Shown here piece by piece: positions 21,848 to 60,583 of a stretch of DNA of 64,000 nucleotides. Origin of the DNA: Gymnopus androsaceus JB14 (Eukaryota; Basidiomycota; Agaricomycetes; Agaricales; Omphalotaceae); assembly GCA_009733575.1 (NCBI GenBank), contig ML769392.1, positions 496,001 to 560,000 on the forward strand. The letters are read 5' to 3'. The notes below the pieces were generated by a model, which saw only the letters and a program-made list of their open reading frames with translations, did no database searches and was not told the origin of the DNA. The position numbers and the translations under genes were made by a program. Position 1 is the first letter of the stretch, and each line of letters opens with the position of its first letter.

Positions 21848-24800
21848 CTACGTTCTCTCGAGCTGTGATCTACGAGCGTGATGTCTGTGGAGCGTCTCTG
21901 CCACCTGTCCCATCTGAGGAATTGTGCTCAGCCGGTTAGCTGCTCTGAGAAGACCATCTACAATGGCAGTTTGAGAATAAATTTGAGAGAGAGAGCAATA
22001 GATGTACCTAAAGGCCCATTGAGGACCCCACAATCTTTGAGTTTGTGTAGAGGCCCATCGCAAACAGCACACGTCTCTTCAGGGATAATTTGCTGTTTCG
22101 GTTTCTTCGAGGAAGGCTCGGAAGATGACGGAGACGAAGGACGTTTTCCAGCTCCGGTAGGGTTGACTCCGTTGCGATGAACAGTAGAAAGACCAACCAA
22201 CGCGGAGGTTCCAGAGGGGCCTGCGTCGGGGGCAACTTGCCTCGAAGGCCCGGCGGGGGCTGTTTGCCTCGAAGATCCTGCATTATTGCTCACAGCAGGG
22301 CTAACATGTACAAACTTCGCCACCGTCGGTCCTTGTTTCTTGGTCACAGCCGGGGTTTGTGTCTTTGGTACTGCTTGCCGGGGGGCTCTGACGGGATACA
22401 GCGGCTGTCCATAGATCATCCTTTCGTGCCCACGTCTGCGAAGGACTTCGTCAATTGAATTCACAGCAGCGCACTGTATAGACTTGATTAGAGGAATTAT
22501 GGATTACTACGAGAAGGATAACGCACTCTGTGTTCGTATGATTCATCTTCTGTATGCATTATCAGCATTTCGCGGTACTCGACCAGATTCTCAGATGATT
22601 CTGTCATTGGACAATTCCCAGGACCGTGACGTTGACCGCACAAACCACATAGACCAGGAGGAACGTTCGTCGCAGGGAACGGACTCGAAAGCGTTGCTTT
22701 GGATTTTCCCTTCTTGTTCTTTTCGGGCGCTAGGTCTTCGACCTCCACCGCATCTACCTCGCTTTCAGAGGATCCGCTAGCATCAGAAATGTGTTCAGAG
22801 CCACCATACACCGATTCGCCATCCGAATTCCTATTGCGGGATTTCTTGGGCGTATCGAAGTCAATAGCATACTGCAATTAAACAATTAGCGGAAGAACAA
22901 AGAACAAAAATATAACCCTACGTTGATAGCAGCTGCAGCTTTACGGCGTACATTACGTCGGCTTCCTCTTCCAGACTCCTCCTCTTCCTGTGCTTGCTTT
23001 TTAGCTCTCTCTTCGTTGATTTTCTGAAGGGTCTGAGCCCAAGAGTCGACTTCAAATTGATCGTCATCAGCAACTTCCTCAAGCTCATCTTTGTCTGCCG
23101 TCCAAATCTTTGCAAAAGAGAACGCAGCGCCCTCCTTGGGAGCAGTCTCTTCATCTCCTTCTTTCTCGGTCTTGGCGATAAGATTGTCGATATCCAACTC
23201 GGAGTCTGAGCTTGAATTAAGGCAAAATGAAGTGTTATGTTTCGCTTGACTTACAGACGATATCCTTGGAATTATCCGAAGTTCCATCGAACAAGTCGTT
23301 GAGCTCCGTATGTCAAGATAGATTGGACGTTTTCTCCAGCCGAATCATCGTCATCCATTTTTTGCACGATAAGATGGTCCAAGACAAGTTTCTTCTTGCC
23401 AATTTGCATAATGCGTTCTGCTAAATAGTATGATCAGTAAAAAAATATGCAAAAGCCAGCAATAGACAAGAATAACCTTCAGCTGAGTCTTTCACAACTA
23501 ACTTGAACACTAGACAAGTTTTCTTCTGCCCGAAACGATGCGCTCGCGCAATAGCCTGCATTGTAAGTTTAGTACAACAACTGTTGAGGCTAATGTAATC
23601 CAACCTGCAAATCCTGGTGAGGATTGAAGTCGGGATCAAATATAATGACAGTGTCTGCTGTCTGAAATAATAGTTAGCAATTGTTGAATCATTCATAGAT
23701 AACCATTCTTACGAAAAGGTTAATTCCAACGCTCTGATTTTTGCTTCATTAACCAATGTAAAAAATAATTCGACGTTTCTACTCACCCCTGCCCGGGTAG
23801 TTAAAAGATAAATGAAGATATCGGAATTAGGTCGGTTGAATTCATCCATCCCTTTTTGCCTGTCAGTTCCTTTTGTGTTGCCATCCTGTTGAGAGTGAAC
23901 AAAGACACAGAATGTTGAAGGAATAGCGTCTTACCAAGCGCAAGAACTTGTGTCCTTCGCCCGTCAAAAAGTCTTCGATGATATTGAGGGCGATCACAAA
24001 CTGAGGGATGTTAGTCTCGATGCACGAGCCAGCCAGAAACAAAAATAACTACCTGACTGAATATTAGAACTCGATGTCCTCGTGCTTTCAGCTTTGGAAG
24101 AAGGTCTCTGAGCAGCCGCAATTTAGCGCTAGCACTAATGAGTTTTTCATGAGTTTCTTCAGTTGACAGGTGGCGTGGCTCGATGTCTTCGTCGTATAGG
24201 TAGGGGTGCTGTAGGCATCTACACAGACCCAGATCAATAAAAACAAGAGAATTGACGATTGCTCTAAACATACTTGCGCAGCTGCATTAACATATTGTTA
24301 ATATTGGCCTTGCGCGTAGTGGGATTCGGGCCAGTTGGTTGCAATAGACCTTGTAGTAACTCGACATTGTGGCCTACAATGGTCCTCAGTAGATATCGAG
24401 ATTGAGGAAGAAGGTACATACTAAGAATTGAGCGATAGACTTCCTTCTGAAGAGAAGACATTGAGAGTGGTACAATAACCTCATTCTACAGAAGATGATG
24501 AGTGAGTTGTGAGAAGAGAAGGGAACCGAAATAGAGACCTTGGGAGGTAAATCAAGTACTTCGCTTTTGATGCGACGAAGAAAATAAGGTCTTAAGAGAT
24601 TATGCAGTTGTTTGACAAGATCCTCGTCGAGGTCAGCATACTCTCTTTCGAGAGCGGGTAGATCATTCCAATTAGCAGGGTCCAAGAAGTTCATGAGATT
24701 GAAAAGTTCGCGCATGTTGTTGTTAAGAGGAGTCTATGGAAGGCGTCAATAAGTACAGTGTATGAGAAAAGATATAACACACCCCAGTCATAATAATACG

Positions 24801-27800
24801 TTGTCCAGTTGTCAATTCATTCAGTTTCCTGAAAAGGAGGCTGCTGTCGCTTTTCACTGTATGAACTTTGTCAGGCAACAAAAGAAAAAATGAAGCAGTT
24901 TGTTCTTACATCTCTGCCCCTCGTCAATGACCAATACCTTGATAGATAAATTAGGAAAGATATGGCGATACGGAAAAGCAGCATACCTCCCAACGCGGCT
25001 GACTCTTGAAAACTGAGCCAAAGTCTTTCGGGTTAATGAGCGACTCATAAGTGGTCACCAAGACGTGAAACTTAGAACCGGTCGTGCCTGATGCGACCTC
25101 CGAATGGCGTAGTTCAAATTTCTTCACAACATCGCGGGCCTTCGACTCGCCATAGAAAGGAACAACGCGAAGTTTGGGTGCCCATCGTTCGAACTCTCTG
25201 TGTAATCATAAATGAAATTCCATCAGTATGTTTATAAGTAAGATTGATTAGACCGTCACCTAATCCAGTTAGTGATCGTGGAGTTGGGTACGACGACCAA
25301 AGCGGGTCCTGTATTGTCGAACTGCTGCACGATGTGCCCGATGAAGGAAGTAATCTGTACCGTTTTGCCCTATGTCGAAGGATTAAGAGATGGATTCGAT
25401 GAACCGAAACGCAAACTTACGAGGCCCATTTCATCGGCCAAGATACAGGTTTGTTTATTCCACCAGTTTTTGCATAACCAGTTGAATCCATCCACCTTTG
25501 AGTTTTGTTAATGTGGACTTCGATTAAAACATAAAGAGACAGACCTGAAATGGCATCAGCCGTAATTTGGGGTCTTGGCCTAAATCCAGTTGGTCGGCGG
25601 TTTTGATCAGAAGGTTTTTGGGAACTTATCCTTCGGCCGATTTTCAATAACCGCGATCTCTTTCGCGCTGTATTTGGGTATTTGTACTTTCCTAGCCACG
25701 GAAAAACGTATCAGTGCTTCCTGGAAGGCGGGGTACGTTGCATCCATGGGTCTTGGAGGTGCGTCCCAGGTTGCTATCATATTTGTCAAAAAAAAAGTTG
25801 GAGAAACGAGATGTTCAAGTTGCACTTACACTCTTCGTATCCCAGATCCGACCATTTAAAGAAGGCCCAAATCACCAAGCCAATGTGCTTGTGCGGGTCA
25901 AAGTCCTCACCAGTGCGCACCTCGAAGTCATCGACAGACTCGACAAATCCTACTGGCTCTTCCCCTTCGTCGAACGCTGCTCTAACCGCCTCCGTAAGGT
26001 CTTCCGAATCAGATTCATCAGATTCATCATCCTCTGATTGAACCATCAGTCGTTTTTGACGACCTCCTTTGCGCTTCTGTTTAGATTTGGGTTGCGCACG
26101 GGAGGGGTTGAGGCGGAGCTGAACGTCCAGAACTCGGTCAACAGTCTTCCAGCTGATAGGAATTCTGTCTTCGGCATCAACCAAAGCAGATAGCGATGAG
26201 CCCGAGTCGACATCAGGTTTGGAAGGCTTGGCAGAAGAATCGTCCGGAATATCGAAAATACTACTTGGTTCCTCTTCTCTGCGAAGATTGTCATCTGGAA
26301 CTCCACCCAAGAGCTCAACCTTTGTGCCATTCATGGTGAAGTTCTTCAGCTTGGAAAAATTTGTCGAAACTAGCCACATGTGAGGGACCCATTCCGTTCG
26401 TCTATACCCTCTTTCCTGCCACTTGACAAGGTATTCTCTGGGCAAAGGCTCCTTGATATTGAGTGTCAGTACGTTAGACTGGGTGGACCTCGATGGCAGT
26501 CGAAGGATAAGGTCGCCAAGCAAGAATCTTATCGAGACTCCACTGGTAAGAACTGCAATCGCCACAGAACCAATTCGATTGGTAACGGGATGCGAGCGTC
26601 GTTAAATCGTCCTCTATGTCGTCCTGTATGTGTTGATAGTGGGCTAGACGTTTGCACGCGAAACAGCGAAAGAGCAGCTGCACGACCTCTGCAGTGGTGT
26701 TAGGCACTCCAGAAGATGCTGCTTCCATCTGGACGTCGCCTTCCGCATCTTTAGCATGTTCGATCGACGTCGACAGCTCGTTCAATTGGGCAGATTGCCC
26801 GGGCACCATTTCTAAACAACCCATGCAAACACCGCCCTTGGTGCAATAACCTAAGGTAGCAATACATGAGGAAGGGTAAAGATCGATCAACGAATACCCA
26901 CTCACTACATATGAAGTCTGTCATCTCGTTGATGTCTAGGCCAGGCCGCTTTCGGGGACCATCTTTTTCTACGCTGAGCTCTTCTCCCTCGTGCTCCTTC
27001 AGCCATTCAACTCGGTCACGCTCTCGTGCTGCCTTTAGTATTTCTTCTTGGTCGACCCGTGAGAGACAGGACCAGTGTACGGACACCGGACATTTCAAAC
27101 TTGGGAGGATTTCTGTGAATAAGAATACCTAGCAGAAAGATGTAATATCACCCACCAACGGACCCAACCTCCCTTGGACTTTATACGCTCGACTTCATCG
27201 TCCTCCTCTTCTTCTTCATCCGAATTCCTTTTTCGTCGCTTTCCCTTTTTCGCTCGTTTTGTCTCTTTTTGAAGTAACATATGTGCAGGGTTCTCATGAC
27301 ACTTTCCACATCTCAACCAATGCTCTCTGAGCTCTCTCGTGTTCGGATCGGGATCTTCGTCGAATTCATCGACAGAGCGAAAACATCCGTACTCCGGCTT
27401 AGTCCCCGTGTAAGCTTTCTTACCACCGCGACCCTTGCTTTTCCCATTCTCTCTGCCCTTCGAGGCCTTGCCGCGTGTGCTAACACTATATTCATCACTT
27501 TCACTAAGAGCCGACTGCGAAAAGTCTTCATCGTCCAGCCGGATCTTGGTTGGCTTGAGTCGCTGAGAACGACGTCGAGTTCGGGGACCATTCGACTCGT
27601 CATCTTCCGAATCCGAAACAGGATATACCGTCCTACTTCGAGTCTTCCTCGGGCTGAAAGGCAGAGTGGACGACTGCGTTTTGTGGCGCAAGCTCCTTCG
27701 CGTAGCAGGTCTCTCGGATTCCTCTCCACTGTACGGATCTTCTTCGGACTCTGGAACCTCAGATTCGTCGCTGTACTGGCTTCCATGAGCAGAAGACGCG

Positions 27801-28409
27801 CTTATCGAAGCACGCCGTTTGTTGATAGTGAGCCTGAACTGTATACGCCATTTGGGATGAACCTGAGCGCTTGAGGGATCGAATGGCTCGAGATTCCCAT
27901 CTTCCTTTTTTGCGTCTAAAAATCAGAGTGAGAATGCACTTAGGTTATACAAAGAAAAGCACTCACCATAGGCCGCGATGAGATCAGGATATGTTTGAAC
28001 GAATTCTTGGGCTGGAAACTAGCGATTTCACGCGTTAATCATCAGGGAACGCGTCCATTTAAGAGCACTCACGCCGCGAATTGATTCCTTTTTCAAAGCG
28101 ACCATAGTACAAAGGCCCCATGAGATCATCGACAGCTTCTCCAACAACCTCGTCTACTTTGATTGACTTGTCCAATGGAGGAACAAGACTTTCATATAGA
28201 GCCTTGTTTGTTTCAGGAAGACGAGGAAGAGAAACGTAAGGAAGGAGTCGTGGTTTGGTATTTTTGGTAGATTTTTCGTCGGAGCTAGAGGCAATTTCGA
28301 ACCTATTTTCAGGAGGGGAGACAGAAACCATTTCTGGCTCTGATTCAGCCATGACAGTGGACGTTGAAAAGAGCTGAAGAGCAGAAGCGTCAGCAATGAG
28401 TCCGGCCAT
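21848..28409 (-). CDS. Mit1/CHD-like SNF2 chromatin remodeler with PHD-type zinc finger and chromodomain
   Basis: Large nucleosome remodeler resembling S. pombe Mit1 (SHREC heterochromatin complex). From the N-terminus: a Pro/acid region, Cys-rich PHD-type segments (CGKCHENPAH; CPVSVHWSC; GVCMGC .. CFACKRLAHYQHI), a chromodomain-like block (PREYLVKWQERGYRRTEWVP), the SNF2 motor with ILADEMGLGKTVQ, motif II DEGQ, TGTPLNNNMRELFNLMNFL, and a helicase C lobe ending IARAHRFGQKKTCLVFKL. The C-terminus has two short zinc-knuckle-like motifs (CGLCGQRHGPGNC and CAVCDGPLHKLKDC). About 25 exons. Start ATG 28409 (MAGLIADAS); stop TAG 21850-21848. The penultimate intron (22007-21958) is nearly identical to an intron in SF3A2. 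No obvious frame breaks despite the length. It lies head-to-tail with the RNase III-like and HLTF-like genes. Confidence 0.86.
21958..22007 (-). repeat. Introner-like element, copy 1 (50-nt intron)
   Basis: Intron GTACATCTATTG..TGCCATTGTAG separates ..CTTTAG from ATGGTC in the last part of the Mit1-like gene and restores GPLDGLLRAAN. It matches the intron at 47900-47950 base for base apart from about four changes including one indel. The host genes are unrelated and the flanking exons do not match. Confidence 0.88.
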
Positions 28410-38496: not shown

Positions 38497-41400
38497 TCAG
38501 TTCTGTTCAATCTCGAGCCCATGCAGATCTATGACATACATACTATAGTTGCGATCTGTTGCCTGGGTCGCCAGAGAGTGTCTAGGATCGGAAGGATTGA
38601 GGTCGACGACACCGCATTGGAGGGCTAGCATAATCTTGATGCGAGCGAAATCAGTGCGAGCACAGTACGTTGACTGAAACTACATACCTGATAGTCGTCA
38701 AAACTGAACTCTTGCTGTTGCTTGATGCTATTGAGCATATCCTAATGCATGAAATCAGCGCGAGCACAGTACGTCGACTGAAAACTACACACCGAAGGCG
38801 TTAAGAAGAACAGCGAAAAGTATCGCTTCGCTCGATCAAAATTCTCGTTGGAGTTGACACTAATCGTTTTTACACTCTGTTGAAGCGCCAGAATGTTACG
38901 CAAAATCTTCCGTATTCCGTAGATATTGGGACGACGAAGATATCGTGCACTGCTGATCAGTACATGCTCCATCAACTGGCCCAATCCCGAAAAGATGAAC
39001 CTTTGATCAAGTCGTCAGTCATTGGCCAATCCTAAAACCAAGCCTCCTTACTGTCGTGCTATTGGTGGTAGATTTGGAGATATGAGGTTGTCGCACTCGC
39101 TCAGATCATTGTTGAGATCGATGATATGAGGATCAGGTTCTCCGGCCTCCCCGTCGAGAAAATAGTTGCCCTGATGAAAAAAAAAAAAGTCAGAATGTGG
39201 AGGTTGAAGGGATGTGAAGACATACCCGCATAGCAAGATCAAGATAATACATGGCTCTACATCGTACATCGACCCGGATGGTATGCAAAATTAGCTCGGA
39301 AAGCTGTTCATACGTCTTCAAAAGAGCATGGAACCGGACTAAATACATAACAAGTAAGTCTTTGATTGTAAGAAGATGGACCTGTACTCACAGAGACATC
39401 TCCTTTGAAAGGACAAGTTTCAGCTGGTCTTGCCCAGACGCAATTGGGACATACGCCATGAGAGGCGTGAAAGGTATTGAAATAGCAGACAACGGCTCTA
39501 GATTTTGTGGTGATAGTGGCCCATCCTCGGGGTGGGCTTTCAAAGCGCTCAACTCTGAGGCAAACCACGTCTGAAATCGGAAATGAGCAAAAAGATACTC
39601 GCGAAGAAAGACAGACGACTGACAATGCTGCGATACATGCTAGCCAGATACGCCAGGTTACGTATCGAAGGGACCTGGTCATCACTAGTCATTTGTCTTT
39701 GGCCTAAAAAGTCCTGCTCCAAGTGCGTCTCTTGACGCCAAAGTTGTTGTTGCTGAGTGAGATTTTCATCCTGCAAAGGTATGAGATTTGAAGCTCGTCG
39801 AGAATAATAACATAGTCACACACCGCTGTATTCTGTAGCTCTGTCAAACAAGGCACCAGCTCCGTACGCTGAGCCCATTGCGCGGCCAAAGCGATCTGTG
39901 AAGAGTCACCGGGAATCGAGACAAGATCTTGAAACTTGTCACTACAGCGCTGGTAGAATTGGATAATAACTCCGAGGATCAAACGAGAGTAACTCTCCCT
40001 ATGAAAAGGTGTTGTTTGAAGCATCGCGCATAACGAATTGATCAACGCCATCAGGTGAGTACTAGCCTAGAGAAAAAAATACTCAGAATAGTCCTACAGA
40101 ACAGGGTAAAACTCCTACTTTGATTAATGGCTCAAGCGATATTCGTTTGGATAGAGGGTCAGGCTGAAAGGCTTCCGGTCCTGCGCACAGATTTGTGAGT
40201 GTTAGTCATGAAAAGGAAGGAAGACCGGACACACCACCGATGGCTTGATGGAACAAAAATGACACCTTGTCCTCCAACTGAGGTAGATAGATGTTCAAAA
40301 CGAATTCATCGAGAACCGTTCCCGACTCGTGGACAGAATCTATATCGGAAGGAAGTACGGTGCGAACACGGTCGAGAAACGCCAGTGTTGGTTGAAAGAG
40401 CACGCTAACATGGAATGCATTCGGTTTGATCAACAATCGATGATGCTGGCCAGCTCCGAGGAGCCTGTCATCCGTGCCAACCGAAGAAAGAGCAGACTGT
40501 ACGGTGTTTTCTGCAGAGCCTTGTACAAGACCGGGCATCGTTTCTTTGAGAACCTGGGTCAATTCATCCTCATGAGGTCGTAACATTTTGTTGGTGAGCT
40601 TGGCATCAGTATCTGCGAAGCGGAAAACCGACTGCAAAAAAAAATCAGCAGTTGCGGAGTAACGCTCCAGCGGTACAAACCTTTGTCCGGTCTCTGGAAG
40701 AAAATCTGCCCTCTCTCAGAATCTCGTTGATCGATGATATTGGATTTCTCCCTGACATCACACCCTCTTCTTCGTTGGTTAAATAGTCGTAGACTAGGGT
40801 CTTCATCTACAGGGGACGACTAAGCTGATGATGTCCAAAGGTGGATTGCGGAAGCTTACCTCTGCTTGGATGGAAACCCATATTTCCACAAGAGGGAAAA
40901 GCGTACCAGGTTTGGTTCCGGCAGAGTCTTTAAAATCTCTTCGCTGCATCAAAAAAAGTTATTTTAGAGTGCATTGGAAGACTAATCACTTACAGAACCT
41001 ATCCTATTTGCGACTTCGTATATCACTCTCAGGCCCTGAGCAACAGCATCCATCTTTGAGTACAAGGTCCAGAAGAAGTCCCTGAGGATTTCTTGATCGA
41101 CTTGCTGTGCCGAAGATTCGAGAGCAGCAAGTCGCAAAGAAGAGGCAGGAAAATACCCATTCTTATGTTGAATGATCAGCGATGGATCAGAAGAAAATAT
41201 GTACACTCCTTCGGACTTGGTAGTAGAGAATCCAAACATAGAGCTACGTTTGCCATATTCTGCTCTTTCTGACACTTCCTCGACCGTCGTCTCAATTAGC
41301 GAGTATATTTCGCTCGAGAGTCGCTGCGCGACAATGTCAAGTGTGGCTCCTAATCGACCTAGGACAGCTAAAGATTCCAGTACCGTCTCCAGGTAGGCGA

Positions 41401-43103
41401 AGGAATCTGCTTCTGGGTTGAGTAGCGTTTGAGGATGGCGAGAAGACATGTTATAATTGAACGAGGCTGTTGGCGCGGCGCCGTTGGGCTCGTTTACATC
41501 CATAGGCGCATCATTAGGTCTCAGAGTGAGATCCTGCAGGAAACGTGCCAAACGGGTGCTCGGAAACGATGGTGAAGATGGTGACATGTCCGGTAAAACT
41601 GCAGTTGGTTCATCTTCGAATTCAACCTTGGGAACTTGATATATGGTGTCAGACAGCGAAAGAAAGAGCAGTGGAGACTCACAAGTTCGCTGATTTGGAG
41701 TATACGACGCCCATCGAGAGTCGCACCAGAAAGACTTCAGGAACAAGTGACTATGAAGCTCATCCACCAAGATTTCACGTAAAGCCTATGAATAGTTAAA
41801 TGAGAAATCGGATTATCGATTACATCCTGCACCTACAGTTTCTTGGCCTAGTAGATAACTTCTGAGATCTGAGACTGCGCCAATCTCCTGCATGTCAGGC
41901 TTGTTGATGATTTTTAAATTTCGAACGAGAAGGACGGAAGCCTGCAGTAGGCGTTTTTCGGACATTAAAGTTTCAAGGAGATCGGGTATTGTCTTGAGAT
42001 GTTCACTAAATCAAGTCAGTTGGGATTTCATGCATTATGGTCTTGACGACATACATCTGATCCAGCAGGCGCATCATCTCTTCAAGAGTCTGACCTCTTG
42101 ACCACATTTGAACTAAATCAGCTCGTTTGCTTCCCAAAGCTTCCTTGGACTCTTGCAGAGATGACCGAGCTTCATTTCACCTGTGTCTGAGTTTCAGAAA
42201 GATGGTTCAACAGAGACGCGTGGTGAGGCAACGACGCGGCGAACGCCTGATAGTACTCTATGTAAAGTTTGAGCTGAGTGGACCACGCTATAGTAGTATC
42301 TGAAACGCACTATCAACGGTGCCTTTTAAAGCACTGAAGAGTTTGTACTTTGTCTCTTGGAAATCATCGAGGTCTTTGCCTGCAGACTTTTGATCCAAAA
42401 GGTCCACAGCAAGGTCGACTGGATTGAACTTGGGGGTTCGGTCAGAGTAGATTTCGAGTGTGAGGAGGGTGTATCCTACTTCGGGATCAACGACAAATTC
42501 CCATCCATCTTTAACTTCATTCAAGACGGCTGAATCTCCGAGTTAGCCTGGTATTAGCGGATGACCATCTGATCGCATACCATCGATATCTCCTGGCCGA
42601 GGTTTTGCAGTTCTTCTACCTGCCATTCTCTTCTGATATTGCTGCTGCCTAGCCATCTCTGCCGCCTTTTCTTCATCTCGCATCCTCTGATACTCCATAT
42701 CGTCACTTCCATTGGTCATAGCGCGTCGTCTAGTTCCAGCTGATTGAAAGGCAGAAAGCACAGTGCTTAAAGCCGGAGATGTGGCATCATCTTCGCTCTG
42801 CTGTCGCTGAGGCTGCCGGGATCCAGAAGGGGCATTGGGGCTGTTCCGCGCATTCCGTGAGACCGTTGAATTTCCACTTCGGTCTAGCTCGGAATTTCGA
42901 CTTCTCAATTCCGATCTCTGAGGGCGTGAAGGACCATTGCTGGGGCGAGCGGAATCGGAGGTGTATGAGCCGTTACTAGGCGTTGTTGGCCGTGAAATCT
43001 GTAAAGGTCTTGTTGCAATAGAGCCAGGGGGAGAAGTAATATTATTCCTAGAGACTGAAGGCGAACGATTTTGACGAGTAGGGAATGGCGGAGCACGCGA
43101 CAT
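38497..43103 (-). CDS. SEC8: Exocyst complex subunit Sec8
   Basis: Core exocyst subunit (EXOC4). The N-terminus is a Ser/Pro/Arg-rich disordered region (MSRAPPFPTRQNRSPSVSRN..), then the Sec8 domain. Diagnostic stretches are LETLMSEKRLLQASVLLVRN, MQEIGAVSDLRSYLLGQETA and LREILVDELHSHLFLKSFWC; the C-terminus reads ATDRNYSMYVIDLHGLEIEQ. About 15 exons, stop TGA 38499-38497. One frame break is visible: the T-run (minus A-run) 42176-42178 carries one base too many between HLSETQTQV and NEARSSLQESKEALG. The last two introns (38792-38742 and 38687-38635) are near-copies of each other. It is transcribed away from the LDAH-like gene, with about 60 bp between the start codons. Confidence 0.88.
38635..38687 (-). 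repeat. SEC8 intron, copy B of an intron pair
   Basis: 53-nt intron starting GTATGTAGTTTCAGTC and containing CGTACTGTGCTCGC. It differs from the intron at 38742-38792 by a few substitutions and small indels. The intervening exon is 54 nt and encodes DMLNSIKQQQEFSFDDYQ. Confidence 0.85.
38742..38792 (-). repeat. SEC8 intron, copy A of an intron pair
   Basis: 51-nt intron starting GTGTGTAGTTTTCAGTC, sharing the block CGTACTGTGCTCGC and CTGATTTC with the next intron. The flanking exon sequences are not similar. Confidence 0.85.
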
Positions 43104-47145: not shown

Positions 47146-48009
47146 TCAATAGGCTAAACGGAACATGAACTGGAAACTATACTGCTTGGTATCCGGATCC
47201 CAGTGTGACCAGTTCCAGTAGCCAGCATCATCTGCTTCATCTTCAATCTCGCGAGCCGGAATTCGGAAAGCGATGGTCTCATAAGGTTCGGCAGCGACCT
47301 GTAAAGAGTAGAAATCAGTGCTAGAAACGAGAGGCTGAGCAAAGCAGACGCACTATAAGATACTGGTACGCCTTGTTTGGCGGTTCCCTTTTCTGTTCCC
47401 AAGCACTCATAAACCGGCGCCTTGGAACAACTCCTGGCTTTATTTGAGGTAGATGAACCTGCACCATCATACCTTCCTTCCCAGTATCAACATCCCGTAC
47501 TTTTGTAACTCGATATCCTGGTCGTCCAATTTTGAGGAAAACCTTGCGCTGCACGTTGCTCTGGGCCGGCGCAATCATTAACTGCGTGTCCTTGGCATCT
47601 CGTGCAGCACGACGAGCAAGATTGGTTTGATGCTTTTTCCCTTGCGTGTGTGCCAGATATGAACCTTCGTTTGTGTGGAGGGTAAGACATAAACGACATT
47701 CTAGAGAACCAAGATGATTTCGAAGGATGTAAGGGTCCTTTAAAGAGCTTGAGCCAATGAAAATGAGAAAAGAATAAGAACGTACCTTGGCCAAATCAAT
47801 CGTCTCCAATGCCAACTTTCTCAAACGCTCTCTCCGGTCAACATTTGTTTCGGATGCACCTGCGACTCCTCCTCCTCCAAATTTGGACCCGACACGATTC
47901 TACAATGGCAGTTTGAGAATAAATTTGAGAGGAAGAGCAATAAAATGTACCTGGAAATCTTTTCAACAGTTAGTACATTGAGGAACATTGTAATAAACGA
48001 CTTACCCAT
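47146..48009 (-). CDS. PRP11: Splicing factor 3A subunit 2 (SF3a66 / Prp11)
   Basis: U2 snRNP component needed for prespliceosome formation. The mature N-terminus MDFQNRVGSKFGGGG is nearly invariant in the family and is built from three exons: ATGG (48009-48006), an 8-nt micro-exon ATTTCCAG (47958-47951) and the next exon from 47899. The C2H2-type matrin finger reads ECRLCLTLHTNEGSYLAHTQ followed by GKKHQTNLARRAA. The conserved domain continues (KIGRPGYRVTKVRD, GVVPRRRFMSAWEQ) and ends with YWNWSHWDPDTKQYSLQFMF near TGA 47148-47146. Intron 1 has a perfect TACTAAC branch site; intron 2 is the introner-like element. No proline-rich tail, as in other fungi. A splicing factor gene carrying a mobile-like intron is notable. 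Confidence 0.93.
47900..47950 (-). repeat. Introner-like element, copy 2 (51-nt intron)
   Basis: Intron GTACATTTTATTG..TGCCATTGTAG in SF3A2. The 28 bases from CTCAAATTTATTC to the AG acceptor are identical to the intron at 21958-22007, and the rest differs by about four changes. Confidence 0.88.
47951..47958 (-). other. 8-nt micro-exon in SF3A2
   Basis: ATTTCCAG joins ATGG and AATCGT to give M-D-F-Q-N-R, the conserved SF3a66 start. It is bounded by a canonical intron of 47 nt upstream and the introner-like intron downstream. Confidence 0.88.
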
Positions 48010-48096: not shown

Positions 48097-51000
48097 ATGG
48101 CGCAAAAGCGTACCCTTGAAGACGCGACCTCTACACACAAACCAAAGAAACCCAAAACCACCGAGCATGTTGCACCTACTGCAGCAGCCTCGAATCTTAC
48201 CGCAGATGAGGTCGATTTTCCTCGAGGTGGTGGAACCAGCTTTACTCCATTAGAAGTCAAAGCCATACGCGCAGAAGCAGTAAAAGAGGCCAATGACGAA
48301 TTATTCACTGTATGTTCCTTTTCTACTATCTATTCTGAATCTAATTCCTTTCAGGAATCCGAGCCAGCCTCAAAAAAAGCCAAAAAGTCCAAGCGAAAAT
48401 CTGAAGCTGGTACAGCTAAAAGTTCTACTGAAAAGAGCGACCGTGTTGCACGAATTGAGCATCTCAATTACAAGGTGTGTAACATACTTTAAGAGCATGT
48501 CATTCTATGCTCAAATTCCGTTATAGCGGATGAGCGTCGGAATGAAGATATTCGGTCAAATCGTATCTATACAACCTCTTGCACTTGTTGTGTCCCTACC
48601 GAACCAGCTATTCGGCCATGTTCCAATCACCAACATCTCTTCTCAATTTACTTCTTTACTGGAGAGTATGGACGTTGACGAGGACGACGAGGACGAAGAA
48701 AATTTAGAGGATGAGCAAGCCGAGTCGCGCTCCAAAGTCCCCGAGCTCTCCGACATGTTCCACCCCGGACAGTATGTTCGCGCTACAGTGACGACTATTT
48801 ACGTCCCTGGTACTACCGATGTGACTGGACTCGGGAAATCTCGAGACGAGACAGCTAAAGCTAGCCGGAGGATCGAGTTGAGTTTGAGTCCCGAGAAGGT
48901 CAATGCTGAAATGCAAAAATCCGATCTCAAGGCTGGTTATGTACGTTTACATTTCAATCTTCTAAACATAATGAGTATTGACGCGATCCATAGACTCTAT
49001 CAGTCTCGGTAAAAAGCGTAGAAGACCACGGCTATCTTCTTGATCTTGGTATACCGGATGTATCTGGATTCCTTAGTTTCAAAGATGCCAAATCTAGGCA
49101 AATTACGAGTCGGCCAGCTTCTGGATGCAACTGTTTCCTCTATTTCCAAGAATGGACGGACATGCAATGTTACTCTTGATCCCGAAACATTCAGCTCGTC
49201 CACGGTAAGGACTTGTTGATCATCATACGACGACTTGAAGCTGATTAAAATTTACACACAGCTCACAGAAATTGGCAACGTTTCTTCAGTCCTGCCTGGT
49301 ACTCTGGTGCAGACGTTGATCACAGCTGTGCATCCTACAGGATTCAATCTTCAAGTACTTGGATTCTTTGATGGAACCGTCGATGAGTTTCATTTACCTC
49401 GTAAAATGACTGAAAAGAGTCATAAAGTGGGTAAAAAAGTGAAAGCGAGAGTATTGTATTATCTGCCATCTACGCCGCCGAAACTTGCTTTGAGCTTGAA
49501 TGAGCATGTTGTTGGGTTAACGAACTGCAAGGTCCAGCCGAAGACCTCGAAGACGAGCCTCTTCCATTGCAAGAGGCTTATCCTATAGGAACGTTGGTCA
49601 ACGACGTGAAAGGTCTTGAGGGTTGAAGCAGAGCGTGGATTGACGGTTCGCTTGGATTCAGAGATCGACGGGTTTGTGCACGTACGTTCCTTCTTACTCG
49701 ATTGCTTTACCTGTCCTTAGTATCATTGTAGATCTCTCATATCTCGGACGACCATACACCATCTTTGTCGAATTCAGGTCTGTGGAAGCTTGGGTCTCTG
49801 CACCGAGCAAGGGTTCTGGGTTACTATCCATTCGACGGCCTCCTCCAACTCTCGCTGAAGCCATCTATCCTGGAACAGAAATACCTTCAAGTCGCAGATG
49901 TCCAAGTCGGTGAAATCGTCAAAGGCACTATCAAGAAGCTTGGCGACTCTGGATTATTCGTCTCGTTATCCGGAAACGTTGATGGAGTGGTTTGGCCAAA
50001 TCATTACGCAGATATCGTATTGAAGAACCCATCTAAAAGGTTCAAAGTGGGGGCTACCATCAAGTGTCGCGTAATGTATTTAATTTTTATCTCTCTTCCA
50101 ATTTTGACCAACCAACCCTTGTCGACAGGTACTCGTCGTAGATCCCGAAAAAAACCGCGTCTTCTTGACGGCGAAAAAATCACTTATTGACTCGGATCTG
50201 CCTCGTATCACCAGCTTTGAGGCGGCGAAAGTCGGTTTAGTGACCCATGGAGTGGTCTTCAAAGTGCTCCCCAAGGCTTTGATGATCGAGTTTTATAACA
50301 ACGTGAAGGCGATTATTCCTATCAAGGAAGTCAGGTATGATACATCCAATGAGTTTGGTGTAGTTTCTTACACTTTACTTAGCGAAGAGTCGATAGACAA
50401 TCTCTCTTCCTTATACTCTGCTGGAAAGGTGGTCAAAGTCCGCATCGTAACCTTGAAAACCGAGGAGAACACCATAATAGCCAGTATCCGGAAATCTGGA
50501 GGTGTCTACAAAACGTTCAATACAGATATCTCTGGAGTCGATATTGGGAATATTCTGGAAGGAGTGGTTGCCGAAATCCACAAAGAGAACATTATTTTAT
50601 CTCTGCAGCCTAGTAACGTGCGAGCGCTCATCTCCATAAACAATCTGGCAAATCATCGCGGCCTCTCCCCAGCTCAACTCAAAGTTGTTCTCAAGACGGA
50701 CGACAAACTCGAGGATCTGGTCGTGGTATCACGAAATACGGAGGATAACTTTGTTATAGTAGCTAACAAGCCGAAACCAAAGCCCACACTCGTCAAAACC
50801 ACCATCTCGATGGACACTGTCGAGATAGGCCAGACAGTGGGCGGTAGGGTAGTCCGACATACAGCCCATGGCGCCCTTGTCAAACTTCCTTCCAATATCG
50901 GAGGCATTCTGCACCCTACCGATGTCTCTGACGATTTCGGCTCTGCGTCGGCCTTTCCTGCTGTGGACTCGATATTGAAAGCAGCAGTTGTTTCGGTTGA

Positions 51001-53102
51001 CAAGGACAGAAAACAACTGACCCTTTCAACTCGACGCTCGAGGATGTATCCTGATCAAGCCGGTACGGTTGTGGATCGCGAGATTAGCGAAATTTCGGAT
51101 CTGCATGTTGGGGCTACAGTGCGAGGTTTCATCAAGAGCATTACGGATCATGGGCTGTTTCGTTACTGTCGGATCGGAATATCGATGCTCGAGTCCAAAT
51201 TCGAGAGCTTTTTGACGATGTTAGTGCAAGTTAAACTTCTTTTCGATAGCCGGTACTGACGTTAATGCAGTTCATAAAAGATTGGAAGCCCAACTTCGAG
51301 CTCCATCAACTTGTGCAAAGGCCGTATCCTTAGGTGAGCCACCACTTTATCGGAATAAATTCAATTCTCATAGTAGTGTTCAGCGCGGATGCCAATGCTA
51401 AAAAAGTGGAGATGACTCTTCGGTCAGGCGATCTATCAAAGCCCGTCGCTTTAACTTTGTCAAGCCTTTCTGTCGGACAACATCTGGAAGGATCCGTGAA
51501 GAGGATAGAGGAGTACGGTCTGTTCATACAGATTGATAAGTTCAAAATTAAGTGGTCTTTGTCACAAGTCTGAGGTGAAACAAAAATTTTTCGTATAATC
51601 CTTGCATTCATTCTCTGATACTCTATTGACAGCTTTCCGACAACAAGGAAGCAGATACTGCTATCGCTCTCCGTGGTTTCCGAGAAAACGACCGAGTGAA
51701 AGCTGTCGTCGTTGGCATCAAGGACAAACGACTATCTCTCAGTTTGAAACCTTCCCACTTTTCCGAAGAGGATTTTACTCCAGAAAATGACGGCGACGAG
51801 CACGAGGCCGGTGACCAGTCCATGGAAGCACTCGATGGCGTAGACAGTGAATCGAATGGCGAAGCTTCAGACGAGGAATCTGACGATGAGGAGGTCGCAA
51901 TGCAAGTCGATGTTGACGTTCAAGCCTCGACCCCAACCCAAGCAAACGTCTTCAACGAAAAAACCCTCCAATGGTCCGCTGAAGCTCTCTTCCGGTTTCC
52001 AATGGTTTGGGAACACTGTCAACGTCGATGCCGAGTCCTCCAGCGATTCGGAAGACAGCGATAATGAAGCCCCGTCGAAGAAGAAAAAGAAGAAGCAGCG
52101 CAAAGAGATCGAACAGGATTTGACGGCCCAAATGCATACCAAAGCTCCAGAGTCCAATGCAGATTTCGAGCGATTGCTCCTTGGATCTCCCAACTCATCA
52201 TATCTTTGGATTCAATACATGTCATTCCAGTTGCAGCTTTCTGAGATAGAGAAGGCTCGAGAAATCGGGCGTCGTGCACTGGAGAAGATCAGCTTCAGAG
52301 AAGAGGCAGGAGAAGCTCAATGTTTGGATTGCGCTTCTCAACCTAGAGAACGCGTACGGGACAGAGGAAACCTTGGAGAAGGTCTTCAAAGACGCCGCTC
52401 GAGCAAATGACTCTAAGACAGTTCACTTGCGGCTTGCTTCTATTCTTGACCAGTCAGGCAAGCACAAGGTATGCTGATGATATGCTGTTTATTTAACAAT
52501 GCTAACCCGTCGCCTTAGAAAGCAGAGGAGCAATACAAGCGAACAGGTAAAAAGTTCGGCCTTAGTTCCAAGGTCTGGACTCTCTTTGCAGAGCACTATC
52601 TCCAGAGGGGAGAAATAGAAGAATCAAGAAAACTTCTTTCTCGTGCTTTACAGAGCTTGGAGAAGCGAAAACGTGAGTTGTGTGTTCATAAAAATTCAGT
52701 TGCCAGCTAAGTGAAAGACAGACTTGAAAACCATCTCTCGATTCGCTCAGCTCGAGTATAAGCTCGGTGAACCTGAAAGAGGTAAAACTCTTTTTGAAGG
52801 AATTATAGACTCTCATCCCAAGCGCTGGGATATGTGGTCGGTTTATATGGACATGGAGGCAGGTCAATCCGACATACAGAGCTTAAGGTCAAATATCCTT
52901 GATTCATGTTAAAACCTTGTTCTTACTTTTTTGCAGGAGTCTTTTCGATCGCGTCCTTCAATTGAAACTGACAAGTCACAAAGCAAAATCATTCTTCAAG
53001 AAGTGGTTAGAATTAGAGCGACGTTTAGGTGATGAGGAAGGGGCAGAGATGGTGAAGCAAAAGGCCGTCGAGTGGACCCAGAAATCTAATACTTTGTCAT
53101 GA
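48097..53102 (+). CDS. RRP5: rRNA biogenesis protein Rrp5 (S1 repeats + HAT/TPR), multiple frame breaks
   Basis: Large nucleolar U3-associated factor for 18S and 5.8S/27S pre-rRNA processing. N-terminus [20 protein letters not shown], then a series of S1 RNA-binding repeats (for example [78 protein letters not shown]). An acidic linker follows, then C-terminal HAT repeats ([67 protein letters not shown]). Stop TGA 53100-53102. Family sequence changes frame repeatedly; likely single-base errors are at 49090-49092, 49515-49550, 49612-49613, 51161, 51174, 51317-51319, 51550-51551, about 51900-51965 and 52305-52306. Because the protein is essential in yeast and sequence between breaks is well conserved, indel error is likelier than decay. 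The last 240 bp are duplicated at 60344. Confidence 0.86.
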
Positions 53103-54281
53103 TTATGCATTTCAATCGACATTGCAGCAGCTACAGCTGCGCATAGAATACATATACGGAGATAACAGAAAGCACGAAAGTAAGATAAAGTGATGTGAAT
53201 GGACAGTCGAGATGCTATAACGGTAGATACATTGAGGATGCGGCGAGTTGCCTCTGTCAATCGTCAAGTTCACTTGAGAGGTGTTCGAACGCCAGAGCAT
53301 TTTCTGAGCTCGAGGTGCTTGCGCGTCAGACAGATATAGCGGATACTGGACGCTATCCAAAGGTGGGTTCCCCGAGGAGGAGATTTATCTTGTAAGAAAG
53401 CCGCTCGTTTTCTCGCCGCAACGTAATGTTTTCGTTGCTTAGTTTTTCCAACAGAGTTTCCTCTCGACCTCCTTTAGCGATCATTAACGATGACTGCAGA
53501 CGCTCGACTTCGAGTTGTAGGTCCTCCGCCTGAGTCAGACGATCATCAGACTCTCGCTGTGAAGCAACAGGCTTGTCCCGCAGACTTTCAAGCTCATTCT
53601 CCAAAGGATCAAGCCTTGCATTGACCTCGGTGTTCTCTGTCTGGGTCCGTAGCAGTTGCCGTCGAGTTTCGATGACCTGGGCGCGCATGGCTTCGTTCCC
53701 GTCATCGGATGAGGGAGTGACGCGAGGTTTACCAGCACGTGTGGCATCCAACTCGGCCTGTAGTGCAGTGTTGGCATTTTTTTGTTTCGTCAATTCTTCT
53801 CGCATTCGTCGCATCATTTTTTCAGTACCCATGTGAAATGAGAGCGTCAGATTGTGGTTCAGAGAGACATATTTATGACAACTGCCACTTACTTGACATA
53901 ATGAACTGCGAGCTGGTAATCCTCTTCCATGGTCTGCATCCTCGCTTTGTAGACTCGCTCTGTATCTTCCAGTTTCCGCTCCGCTTCCTCTGCTCGAGCT
54001 TCACTGTCACCCGAAGGCTCCTCGGATGAGGGCTTCGTTGATCTCGCTCGTTCCAGTTGCTTCGAAAGCTGGTCCACCTGGTCCTCGAGCTCACGAGTCC
54101 GAAGAACAGCCTTGGAAAGTTCACGCTCAGTGTTCTCGTGCAAGCGTGTCCGCTCAGCCAGTTTGTTTTCCAACTCTACCAGAGCTACGGGCGAAGCACC
54201 ATCGTGTGACCGTGACCGTGCGGGGAGGTCGAGGTCGTCCTCGTCGACGCTGAGACCATTTTCTGCCATGTAGATACAAAG
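52863..54281 (+). repeat. Segmental duplication, copy 1 (RRP5 3' end + tea1-like 3' part)
   Basis: Matches 60344-61879 at roughly nine bases in ten. The match begins at GTCAATCCGACATACAG within an RRP5 exon and ends just after CTGCCATGTAG inside the tea1-like coiled-coil region. Copy 1 lacks about 110 bp present in copy 2 (around 60690-60815), which removes the tea1 stop codon and last residues. Here RRP5 is intact and tea1 is a fragment. Confidence 0.92.
53195..54269 (-). pseudogene. Truncated tea1-like C-terminal coiled-coil fragment
   Basis: Duplicate of the 3' part of the tea1-like gene. It begins without a 5' exon at [16 protein letters not shown] and follows the same exon-intron-exon layout (54269-53889, then 53832-53353), with the coiled coil [20 protein letters not shown] and [21 protein letters not shown]-to-TAG change stops the frame at 53355-53353, and the original C-terminus is deleted. 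It has no start region or promoter of its own, so it is not expected to make a functional polarity protein. Confidence 0.85.
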
Positions 54282-56505: not shown

Positions 56506-56692
56506 GAAGCATCCACCTTTATCAATACAGAACGGATCTGGTAAGCCTGAGCAGGATCAGCAGGATCTGGTTGCTGTACCATAGAGCGCCAGACGAAGCA
56601 TCCACCTTATTATCAGTACAAAACGGATCTGGTAAGCCTGAGCAGGATCTGGTTGCTGTACCATAGAGTTGTGCAAGACGTCAACCAGGTGG
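56506..56692 (+). repeat. Two units of the 79-bp GAAGCATCC repeat
   Basis: Units start at 56506 and 56595 and share the core ACGGATCTGGTAAGCCTGAG and GGTTGCTGTACCATAGAG with the main array at 57543. The second unit continues into TTGTGCAAGACGTCAACC, exactly as the last unit of the main array does. Confidence 0.88.
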
Positions 56693-57432
56693 TATGACGT
56701 CATTTCTCATCGGAAAAAGAGGCCGCATGACAGTACAATCTACTTGATGTACTCGGTGAATTGTGCTCGTACATCCTACTTGATTAGTGATCAATGTACT
56801 TTGTTTGCTTAATTTATATATAATGTAAGCTGTTAAAGTACTTAGGACACGTTAAACTGTACATTTCAGTTGATTTGGCGGGCCCTTGTGACTGTGAACA
56901 ACCCATTTCAGACCGAAATTTTGCATTTTTGAGGCAATTCTGGGCATGTCACACCAAAAGAGTTCAAAATGTGACCTGTGACCTGGTCAAAATAGTACAG
57001 TATACCTAGTTAAAAGTAGATATAATCACAAGTAAGTTCCAGTAGTGTAGGTGTTGGATTTGATTTTTGACGAGTGCCGTTGTTCGCTAATTGGAATAAT
57101 ATTTACTATATATATTATTCCCTGTAGTGTGTAGATCTCATCCGTTTGCCTCCCGACTCCCACTACGAGGCTCAAACGGAATATATCGTTTGACTCTGCT
57201 CTTCTCGAGTGACGCCGTACCCGTGTATCCAACAGTAGGACATGTACCAGATCCAATGGCCTCAAGTGAAAAATGAAGTAGATAATTCTAGATACAATGT
57301 ACGCAAGAGGAGCATGATCACGATCTCATATACACACACACAGTAGAAATACATGCTCGAAGTACGTCAATCAAGTAGAATCATAATATTTTGATCAACA
57401 TGTACATTAAATGATGAGAACTGACTTCATAA
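56693..57432 (+). other. AT-rich non-coding segment
   Basis: No supported gene. AT-rich, with a short CA run (tacacacacaca) near 57330. The minus-strand frame 57026-57265 shows no recognisable motif. Confidence 0.45.
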
Positions 57433-57542
57433 GGTGGGCCTGTTGAGTCGGGTCCGAAATGAAGTTATTATTGCTTACTTGCCTACATGTGTATGCCACT
57501 GGCACCTATGATCTTAAGTGGTCGGGTGTATTTGTATACGTT
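57433..57542 (+). repeat. ~110-bp direct repeat, left copy, flanking the 79-bp array
   Basis: Starts GGTGGGCCTGTTGAGTCGGG and ends ATTTGTATACGTT. The right copy is at 57957-58063 with few differences. The tandem array starts at the next base. Confidence 0.9.
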
Positions 57543-57956
57543 GAAGCATCCACCTTTATCAATACAAAACGGATCTGGTAAGCCTGAGCAGGATCTGGTA
57601 TCTGGTTGCTGTAACATAGAGCGCCAGACGAAGCATCCACCTTATCAGTACAAAACGGATCTGGTAAGTCTGAGCAGGATCTGGTTGCTGTAACATAGAG
57701 CGCCAGACGAAGCATCCACCTTATCAGTACAAAACGGATCTGGTAAGCCTGAGCAGGATCTGGTTGCGGTAACATAGAGCGCCAGACGAAGCATCCACCC
57801 TATCAGTACAAAACGGATCTGGTAAGTCTGAGCAGGATCTGGTTGCAGTAACATAGAGCGCCAGACGAAGCATCCACCTTATCAGTACAAAACGGATCTG
57901 GTAAGCCTGAGCAGGATCTGGTTGCTGTACCATAGAGTTGTGCAAGACGTCAACCA
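57543..57956 (+). repeat. Tandem array of five ~79-bp units
   Basis: Units start at 57543 (87 bp, with an extra TATCTGGT), 57630, 57709, 57788 and 57867. Each starts GAAGCATCCACC and contains ACGGATCTGGTAAG(C/T)CTGAG; the first four end GAGCGCCAGAC. The fifth diverges into TTGTGCAAGACGTCAACC and runs into the right flanking repeat. Confidence 0.93.
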
Positions 57957-58063
57957 GGTGGGCCTGTTGAGTCGGGTCCGAAATGAAGTTATTATTGCTT
58001 ACTCTACACGTGTATGCCACTGGCACCTATGATCTTAAGCGGTCGGGTGTATTTGTATACGTT
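57957..58063 (+). repeat. ~107-bp direct repeat, right copy
   Basis: Nearly identical to 57433-57542; a 3-bp length difference lies around GCTTACTCTACACGTG. The array therefore sits between two direct copies of the same sequence. Confidence 0.9.
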
Positions 58064-59386: not shown

Positions 59387-60164
59387 GCTTGAACGTACCG
59401 TCACCTCAGAGAATATTCCGAATCACTGTGATTTATAGCATTAGATTGACTCTCCGTAATAAAAACTATATCGTCTGAAAAAGTTAGTGAAAGTTGAATA
59501 AAACTCAGGTTATACTCGCACATACAAAAGATCATACAAAAGATCATACAAAAGATCGGACACACCAAAGTAGATATATACTTAAGTAGTAATGGCTTGC
59601 TTGCGAGCCAGAGTCTGTCCAAGTTTTAAAGGGATCCCATATATGACCTAGTCACTGAGTCGAAAAGATTCCAAACTGGCAGAACACTTAACAGAGTAAT
59701 CTTGAATGGATTTATAATTATACTGCGGCCTTTTGCATACCAGCGAAGAGACTAGGATGAGGCAAGGAATTTTTCTGGAGCTCGTAAGCATGAAATTACA
59801 AGAGCGTAGCTTTATGAGTATTGAGGAGATGGATGTATGTGGCAAAGTGCAATCTTGAATTGATCTTGAACTTGAAATGAAAGGCTTTGATCGACTAATC
59901 ATCAAAACTCACAGAAGCTACTGGCACGAGTCTAAACTTGAAGCTTCTCGACTCGGATGATGTCGGAGGTCTCAGTCTTCTCATCATGATTGAAGTACAG
60001 TACATTCCGGGTATAGTTGAAAGAGCGAAAAAGAAATGCCCAGTTCCAAGCAACATTGGAACTTGAAAAAGCTTGATAAAATGGGGCTTCTAGCTTCCCC
60101 CATCCAATGTACTTACATAGAAGGAATGTACCACTGTGCTGAAAGGAATACGTCTTTTTCTCCT
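59387..60164 (+). other. Non-coding segment with a short tandem repeat
   Basis: Contains three copies of the 12-mer CATACAAAAGAT at about 59518-59555. No supported gene: the minus-strand frames 59401-59622 and 59648-59905 lack motifs. Confidence 0.5.
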
Positions 60165-60284
60165 GCTTTTCAGCCTGCTTTTCAGCCTGCTTTTCAGCCT
60201 GCTTTTCAGCCTGCTTTTCAGCCTGCTTTTCAGCCTGCTTTTCAGCCTGCTTTTCAGCCTGCTTTTCAGCCTGCTTTTCAGCCT
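60165..60284 (+). repeat. 12-bp minisatellite, 10 units
   Basis: Ten perfect copies of GCTTTTCAGCCT (in register with codons for Ala-Phe-Gln-Pro on the plus strand). The enclosing open frame 60036-60323 has no other coding signal. It lies 60 bp before the second copy of the segmental duplication. Confidence 0.93.
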
Positions 60285-60343
60285 GAACTTCAAGGCGCTC
60301 ATCCTCTTCTCTTTAATAAATAATAAATCAAGTGCCTACTTAA

Positions 60344-60583
60344 GTCAATCCGACATACAGAGCTTAAGGTCAAATATACTTGATTCATGTTGAAACCTTG
60401 TTCTTACTTTCTTGCAGCAGTCATTTCGATCGCGTCCTTCAATTGAAAATGACAAGTCACAAAACAAAATCATCCTCCAAGAAGTGGTTAGAATTAGAGC
60501 GACGTTTAGGTGATGAGGAAGTGGCAGAGATGGTGAAGCAAAAGGCCGTCGAGTGGACCCAGAAATCTAATACTTTGTCATGA
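60344..60583 (+). pseudogene. RRP5 3'-end fragment (duplicate)
   Basis: Duplicate of the last RRP5 exons, beginning inside the exon at [10 protein letters not shown], retaining the intron and ending at the same stop ([12 protein letters not shown]). Coding differences from the intact copy include S/H, L/M, A/T and G/V changes. It has no upstream gene body. Confidence 0.88.

What the first reader, a model, noticed from the sequence alone, without database searches (positions are those of the whole stretch)
21958..22007. Near-identical introns in unrelated genes: candidate introner-like element family
The 50-nt intron here (Mit1-like gene) and the 51-nt intron at 47900-47950 (SF3A2) share one sequence from GT to AG with about four differences, including 28 identical bases at the 3' half, while the flanking exons are unrelated. 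Both splicings are demanded by conserved protein sequence, so these are true introns. Unrelated introns should not look alike; this is the hallmark of introner elements, known from prasinophyte algae and Dothideomycete fungi. Two in 64 kb suggests many genome-wide.
Basis: partly seen in the sequence, partly recalled or inferred. Interest (0 to 1): 0.88.

Follow-up and report, generated by a model that had tools for sequence, protein, structure and literature searches.

The report
One intron copied between two genes
In a mushroom genome that matches Gymnopus androsaceus, two unrelated neighbouring genes carry almost the same 50-base intron and our searches of the 83-million-base assembly found no third copy, so this is likely a single intron that was copied once into another gene, a rarely caught way of gaining introns, and not a spreading intron family.

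Summary
In detail: introns at 21958-22007 (SNF2/Mit1-like gene) and 47900-47950 (SF3A2), both minus strand, differ by three substitutions and one indel, end with 32 identical bases, and are alike only from exon ...AG through the intron to the first exon base. Both are true introns by protein evidence: SF3A2 aligns to human SF3A2 across the junction; the deposited protein and Lentinula homologues demand the other splice. Among 384 introns of 190 kb the pair scores 42, the next pair 19, shuffles 18-20. The introner-family interpretation fails: six searches of the 83.27-Mb genome able to show a third copy found only these two; no stable RNA fold; 120 other predicted introns showed no stand-alone copy. 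The SF3A2 site looks old in Agaricomycetes. Best reading: one recent, seamless duplication of an ordinary spliceosomal intron, probably SF3A2 to Mit1-like, likely through excised intron RNA. Donor and copy are both readable, which is rare; age of the Mit1-like site, direction and RNA step are inferred, since no relative's DNA could be reached.

The parts
21958..22007 (-). Intron A, 50 nt, GTACAT...TTGTAG, phase 1, last intron of the SNF2/Mit1-like gene; the likely copy
   Evidence: spliced out in deposited protein P0124 and demanded by Lentinula P0126
47900..47950 (-). Intron B, 51 nt, GTACAT...TTGTAG, phase 0, second intron of SF3A2; the likely donor
   Evidence: MDFQ|NRVG junction matches human SF3A2
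47951..47958 (-). SF3A2 exon 2, an 8-nt microexon (ATTTCCAG) just upstream of intron B
   Evidence: needed to give MDFQ
47959..48005 (-). SF3A2 intron 1, 47 nt, with TACTAAC branch site, only 8 nt from intron B; its presence argues against B having arrived by recombination with cDNA
47146..48009 (-). SF3A2 (Prp11) gene, five coding exons, 220 aa
21848..21957 (-). Last coding exon of the Mit1-like gene, (D)GLLRAANRLSTIPQ..., 110 nt with stop
22008..22473 (-). Exon upstream of intron A, 466 nt (its far end predicted), ending ...CDGPLHKLKDCGVLNGPL
21848..28409 (-). SNF2/Mit1-like chromatin remodeller gene (deposited as BT96DRAFT_914203); start approximate, the deposited protein aligns from 28352

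Best explanation
Introns A and B are two copies of one ordinary spliceosomal intron, alike from GT to AG and unlike outside, and A is likely a recent copy of SF3A2's intron B, predicted to have been made through the excised intron RNA. Shown: near-identity, seamless boundaries, splicing by protein evidence, a copy number of two in the searches made. Inferred, step by step: (1) the SF3A2 pre-mRNA is spliced and releases intron B as a lariat; (2) the RNA is reverse-spliced into the Mit1-like transcript at ...TTTAG|A (or tethered into a DNA break there) and turned into DNA; (3) the copy, carrying its own splice sites, is spliced at once and so tolerated. Direction B to A rests on two inferences: the SF3A2 site looks old in Agaricomycetes, and SF3A2 intron 1 survives only 8 nt from B, which a cDNA-mediated insertion of B should have erased, whereas A is the 3'-most coding intron, with a 466-nt exon on one side and the terminal exon on the other, as reverse transcription from the 3' end would favour. 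Whether A filled an intron-less site or replaced an older intron is open.
For: Alignment 47/51, boundaries at the splice sites, unrelated flanks. Pair score 42 against 19 for the next best of all pairs among 384 introns (382 predicted plus A and B), 18-20 as maxima of 5 shuffled sets. Two copies only. Splicing demanded at both sites. B site old: of the 8 metagenome frames that run on into the next SF3A2 intron and hold residues before NRVG, 7 (P0031, P0079, P0082, P0085, P0087, P0088, P0094) have Q or K, the reading of an intron's ..AG, directly before N without the D-[FY]-Q of the exon (P0031, MFQ, is borderline), and 1 (P0080) has DFQ joined; a Pisolithus protein reads DYQ|VRQ (could be CAG|GTACGT) and a Lenzites one LLTRHDQ|NRVG (could be a CTAAC branch site then CAG). 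Age: 92% identity is close to that of paralogous introns in a local duplication (89.9% of 976 and 89.5% of 927 aligned bases). Intron transposition is a recognised route, 14 events counted by 2012, in Mycosphaerella and Oikopleura (PMC3443670 section 6).
Against: No relative's DNA could be reached, so it is not shown that site A is newer than site B. The old age of site B is read from proteins, not DNA, and one unspliced frame (P0080) lacks the intron. A DNA-level copy with short shared letters at the joints (AG at one end, TAGA at the other) leaves the same scar. Reverse splicing had been shown only back into the original position by the 2012 review; a later yeast report is recalled, not read. 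Both genes lie 26 kb apart on one strand, which an RNA in solution need not favour, though the pair was found because both lay in one window.
Confidence: 0.45

Rival explanations
1. DNA-level templated insertion: during repair of a break in the Mit1-like gene, synthesis switched to the nearby SF3A2 gene, copied one intron and switched back using short shared letters (AG, TAGA); only a cut exactly at the splice sites survived selection.
For: Donor is close (26 kb, same strand). Short matches at both joints (AG before; TAG of the exon end and intron end plus A after). Needs no reverse transcriptase or reverse splicing.
Against: Random template switches should rarely stop within 2 nt of both splice sites; nothing recognisable of the neighbouring exons was carried along.
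Confidence: 0.23
2. Both sites held introns long ago and one was overwritten by the other (intron replacement or conversion at an existing exon junction), so no intron position was gained.
For: The SF3A2 site seems occupied in several Agaricomycetes. The 2012 review reports that of 95 introns with homologous sequences only 11-24% may be novel (PMC3443670 section 6).
Against: Exons do not share sequence to guide conversion; no evidence either way on the age of site A.
Confidence: 0.2
3. A two-member remnant or beginning of an introner-like element family.
For: End-to-end similarity in unrelated genes, same orientation to transcription.
Against: No third copy in 83.27 Mb; no stable fold, z -0.03 for both; no terminal inverted repeat (ends no more complementary than in 343 and 353 of 500 shuffles) and only the trivial AG as target repeat.
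Confidence: 0.08
4. Chance likeness or assembly artefact.
For: None beyond the small size.
Against: 0 matches expected; the two introns differ at four places, sit in different genes, and A is spliced out in the deposited protein.
Confidence: 0.02

Closest known systems
Intron transposition (Mycosphaerella, Oikopleura; as reviewed in PMC3443670, section 6 read)
   Same: An intron whose sequence matches another intron in an unrelated gene, seamless at the splice sites
   Different: Here in a mushroom, only one pair, and novelty of the recipient position not shown
Introner-like elements of Dothideomycetes (PMC4457414, part 1 of 4 read; PMC9860276, passages and section 15)
   Same: Near-identical spliceosomal introns in unrelated genes, same orientation, no target-site duplication
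   Different: Those are families (hundreds of near-identical copies reported; survey keeps four or more); here two copies and no stable fold
Sister stwintrons and cropped sister introns of Hypoxylaceae/Xylariaceae (PMC12403724, passages and discussion read)
   Same: Seamless copying of introns into exon sites; model of intron RNA tethered into a double-strand break
   Different: Here a simple intron, no internal intron, no complementary ends
Repeated introns of Cryptococcus gene CNN00420 (PMC2395259, passages)
   Same: Basidiomycete introns with identical sequence, found by searching every intron against the genome
   Different: There within one gene by repeat expansion; here between two unrelated genes

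Membership tests
Introner / introner-like element | Several (four or more) near-identical introns in unrelated genes | tested here: not met
   2 copies found in 83.27 Mb; threshold from PMC9860276 section 15
Introner / introner-like element | Similarity runs to both intron ends, exons unrelated | tested here: met
Introner / introner-like element | Target-site duplication or terminal inverted repeats (DNA-type introners) | tested here: not met
   Flanks share only AG| and |A; ends not complementary beyond chance; fungal introners are said to lack both (PMC9860276 passages)
Introner-like element (fungal) | Stable predicted RNA structure | tested here: not met
   -1.3 kcal/mol, z -0.03 for both
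Intron transposition | Complete seamless copy of another intron, spliced in both genes | tested here: met
   splicing by protein evidence, no RNA-seq
Intron transposition | Recipient position intron-less in relatives | not testable with these tools
   no fungal relative's DNA reached; protein tails of Lentinula and Rhodocollybia do not tell
Intron transposition | RNA intermediate | not testable with these tools
   only the seamless ends and 3'-most position speak for it

The most novel reading that the evidence does not exclude
A natural, recent, seamless RNA-mediated transposition of an ordinary spliceosomal intron between unrelated genes of a mushroom, with donor and copy both still readable, showing that intron gain in intron-rich basidiomycetes can proceed one intron at a time without any introner family, possibly favouring nearby transcribed genes.
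Probability: 0.38. Interest if true: 0.68.

Novelty: new member of a known kind. Interest (0 to 1): 0.45.

Why it matters
Where new introns come from is an old question, and gained introns seldom show their source: a study of a basidiomycete gene rich in gained introns could not identify the donor of any of them and found that intron sequences diverge too fast to align even between closely related species (PMC3584928 passages). Here both ends of one event are still legible, so presence or absence at two exact positions in a handful of Omphalotaceae genomes would give direction and date. Pairs like this fall below the four-intron cut-off of the large introner survey (PMC9860276 section 15), so solitary intron copies may be under-counted.

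Tried and rejected
Introner family: rejected on copy number. Distant members among the 382 predicted introns: best partners of A and B score 14 and 16, within the 12-18 maxima of 20 shuffles made for B. Segmental duplication: flanks unrelated. Dating site A from annotated proteins: tails of Lentinula, Rhodocollybia and Dendrothele are joined and tell nothing; Collybiopsis P0130 looks mis-modelled; Tetrapyrgos P0132 stops at GPER, which would fit a missed donor near the same codon but is only a guess; Lentinula edodes fragment P0121 ends in unalignable residues. For the age of site B I counted only metagenome frames that run on into the next intron; deposited models (for instance P0013, P0024, P0047, P0063, P0070, which have DYQ/DFQ joined and also run on) were left out because a model may splice one intron and not another; 7 more frames that run on (P0038, P0081, P0083, P0086, P0092, P0093, P0114) begin after N and could not be used. 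My automatic gene models are rough: they missed SF3A2 and read into intron A up to its TAG; A and B were added by hand. Genome-wide screening covered 120 predicted introns (47, 31, 27, 15; counts); of these 23 (8, 15) lie within long duplicated copies and match only as parts of them; only 1 of 2 and only 2 of 3 candidates were scored, and the query's own place is missing from both tables; two further queries were not scored at all. A 73% match on C6 covers predicted exon, not an intron. Papers: searches (listings); in these I saw no report of a stand-alone intron pair between unrelated genes in Agaricomycetes, which is no proof of absence since most subscription papers are not held.

Full report
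What is there. Intron A (21958-22007, minus strand, 50 nt) and intron B (47900-47950, minus strand, 51 nt) read GTACATCTATTGCTCTCTCTCTCAAATTTATTCTCAAACTGCCATTGTAG and GTACATTTTATTGCTCTTCCTCTCAAATTTATTCTCAAACTGCCATTGTAG. They differ by three substitutions and one one-base gap, all in the first 19 alignment columns; the last 32 bases are identical. Likeness stops at the splice sites: outwards from the 5' junction only the last two exon bases (AG) agree in an unbroken run, outwards from the 3' junction only the first (A). BLAST of about 1 kb around each against the genome finds, for the intron, only the other intron, 53-54 nt at 93% (one search also shows copies of the neighbouring RRP5-like gene). 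The common 30-mer is expected 0.00 times by chance in the window.

Whose genome. The Mit1-like C-terminus (253 residues, with A spliced out) is 100% identical to P0124, deposited as BT96DRAFT_914203 of Gymnopus androsaceus JB14 on a contig of 586,652 bases, exactly the length of C10, on which the window lies. So the organism is taken to be G. androsaceus (Agaricales, Omphalotaceae). The assembly searched has 83,273,421 bases in 934 contigs.

Both are real introns. SF3A2: exons ATGG | ATTTCCAG | AATCG... give MDFQNRVGSKFGGGGVAG..., which aligns with human SF3A2 from residue 1 to 218; without removal of B the frame ends at the intron's own TAG. Exon 2 is an 8-nt microexon. Mit1-like: the deposited protein has A spliced out, and tblastn with Lentinula edodes P0126 stops at 22009 and resumes at 21961, both at residue 1697; the joined tail DCGVLNGPLDGLLRAANRLST aligns with DCSVVKGDLSNLFKVVNRLST. 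My own rough gene finder preferred to stop inside A, so homology and the deposited model, not my prediction, carry this point. There is no RNA-seq here.

More than chance. I predicted 382 introns in 190,652 contiguous bases of C10 and added A and B. All pairs were aligned: A-B scores 42, the next best pair 19, the best of each of five shuffled sets 18-20. Against the 382 others A and B score at most 14 and 16, within the 12-18 maxima of 20 shuffles for B.

Not a family. In the whole assembly the 30-mer (up to 3 mismatches) and the 3' 23-mer (up to 3) occur twice each, with 0 for the reversed control pattern; the 5' 24-mer of B occurs once, A being too different there; a 63-nt probe at E up to 10 finds two places. 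A 15.6-kb query with 47 predicted introns plus A gives one match in the table, which is B (1 of 2 candidates scored, the query's own place not shown). Queries with 31, 27 and 15 predicted introns give no further stand-alone intron copy; 23 of these introns match only inside long duplicated copies. Two queries could not be scored. So of 122 introns put through scored searches (120 predicted, A and B) two have a stand-alone copy, and they are each other's. The tool warns that repeat counts are lower bounds. Neither intron folds stably (-1.3 kcal/mol, z -0.03), and their ends are not complementary beyond chance.

Age and direction (inferred). The SF3A2 site appears old. Of the 120 listed relatives (of 4,409), 60 have DYQ/DFQ joined to the next exon, 34 lack the stretch, 2 begin at N and 24 have something else before it. 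Eight metagenome frames that run on into the next intron and hold residues before N are informative: seven have Q or K, the reading of an intron's ..AG, directly before N without D-[FY]-Q (P0031, MFQ, borderline), and one (P0080) has DFQ joined, so presence is patchy. P0051 (Pisolithus) reads DYQ|VRQ as CAG|GTACGT would, P0015 (Lenzites) reads LLTRHDQ|NRVG as CTAAC...CAG would. These are readings of proteins, not DNA. The 92% identity of A and B is close to the 89.5-89.9% of introns in RRP5-like duplicates of the same genome, while the Mit1-like tail is only 55% identical to that of Lentinula aciculospora or L. edodes, so the copying is recent on that scale. B as recipient of a cDNA-borne intron is unlikely because SF3A2 intron 1 survives 8 nt away; A is the 3'-most coding intron of its gene, between a 466-nt exon and the terminal exon, where 3'-primed cDNA would act. 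Hence B to A is preferred, not proven.

Mechanism. Three routes leave this scar: reverse splicing of the excised intron into another transcript followed by reverse transcription and recombination (described in PMC3443670 section 6); ligation of intact intron RNA into a double-strand break (PMC12403724 discussion); or DNA template switching using AG and TAGA microhomology. The first two explain exact intron ends without luck; the third explains closeness. I commit to an RNA intermediate at moderate confidence.

Comparison with print. The large introner survey keeps families of at least four introns (PMC9860276 section 15); the passages I saw name Pezizomycotina as the one non-aquatic introner group in its first set. 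Introner-like elements are described as hundreds of near-identical copies (PMC4457414 part 1 of 4). In Cryptococcus, searching every intron against the genome identified one gene with repeated introns (PMC2395259 passages). In a basidiomycete gene rich in gained introns no donor could be identified (PMC3584928 passages). Thus the kind, intron transposition, is known; a legible single pair in a mushroom is unusual, and I saw none in the listings of searches.

Verdict. Observation confirmed; family claim not supported; what remains is a well-bounded single intron duplication whose direction can be settled by a few relative genomes.

Noticed in passing
window 48097-53102: The RRP5-like (S1 domain) gene beside SF3A2 has 92-93% copies on contigs C200 and C340 (part on C263, 91%); the C200 and C340 copies both begin at window 48329, inside predicted intron 1 (48310-48354); on C200 other sequence lies before the break. 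A copy broken within an intron seems to have multiplied.
   Followed up: partly
window 40243-43101: A partial copy of this stretch (two predicted genes, SEC8-like by recall) lies on C412:15119-17652 at 96-97%, missing two internal pieces of about 222 and 100 bases.
   Followed up: partly
window about 25620 and 23290: The Mit1-like gene appears to have two one-base frame breaks against Lentinula homologues (read by eye, frames); the deposited model drops a few residues at the second. Sequencing error or decay not decided.
   Followed up: partly
window 47951-47958: SF3A2 has an 8-nt second exon between two introns; a number of deposited mushroom SF3A2 proteins have odd N-termini, possibly because this microexon was missed.
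   Followed up: partly
window 21958-22007 and 47900-47950: Read as retained introns, both give the same peptide end (IAL-S/P-LKFILKLPL then TAG); probably coincidence of frame.
   Followed up: no
window 56506-58063 and 60130-60316: Tandem 79-nt units and a 12-nt unit array; paralogous pieces 52863-54161 and 60344-61759 at 92-95%.
   Followed up: no
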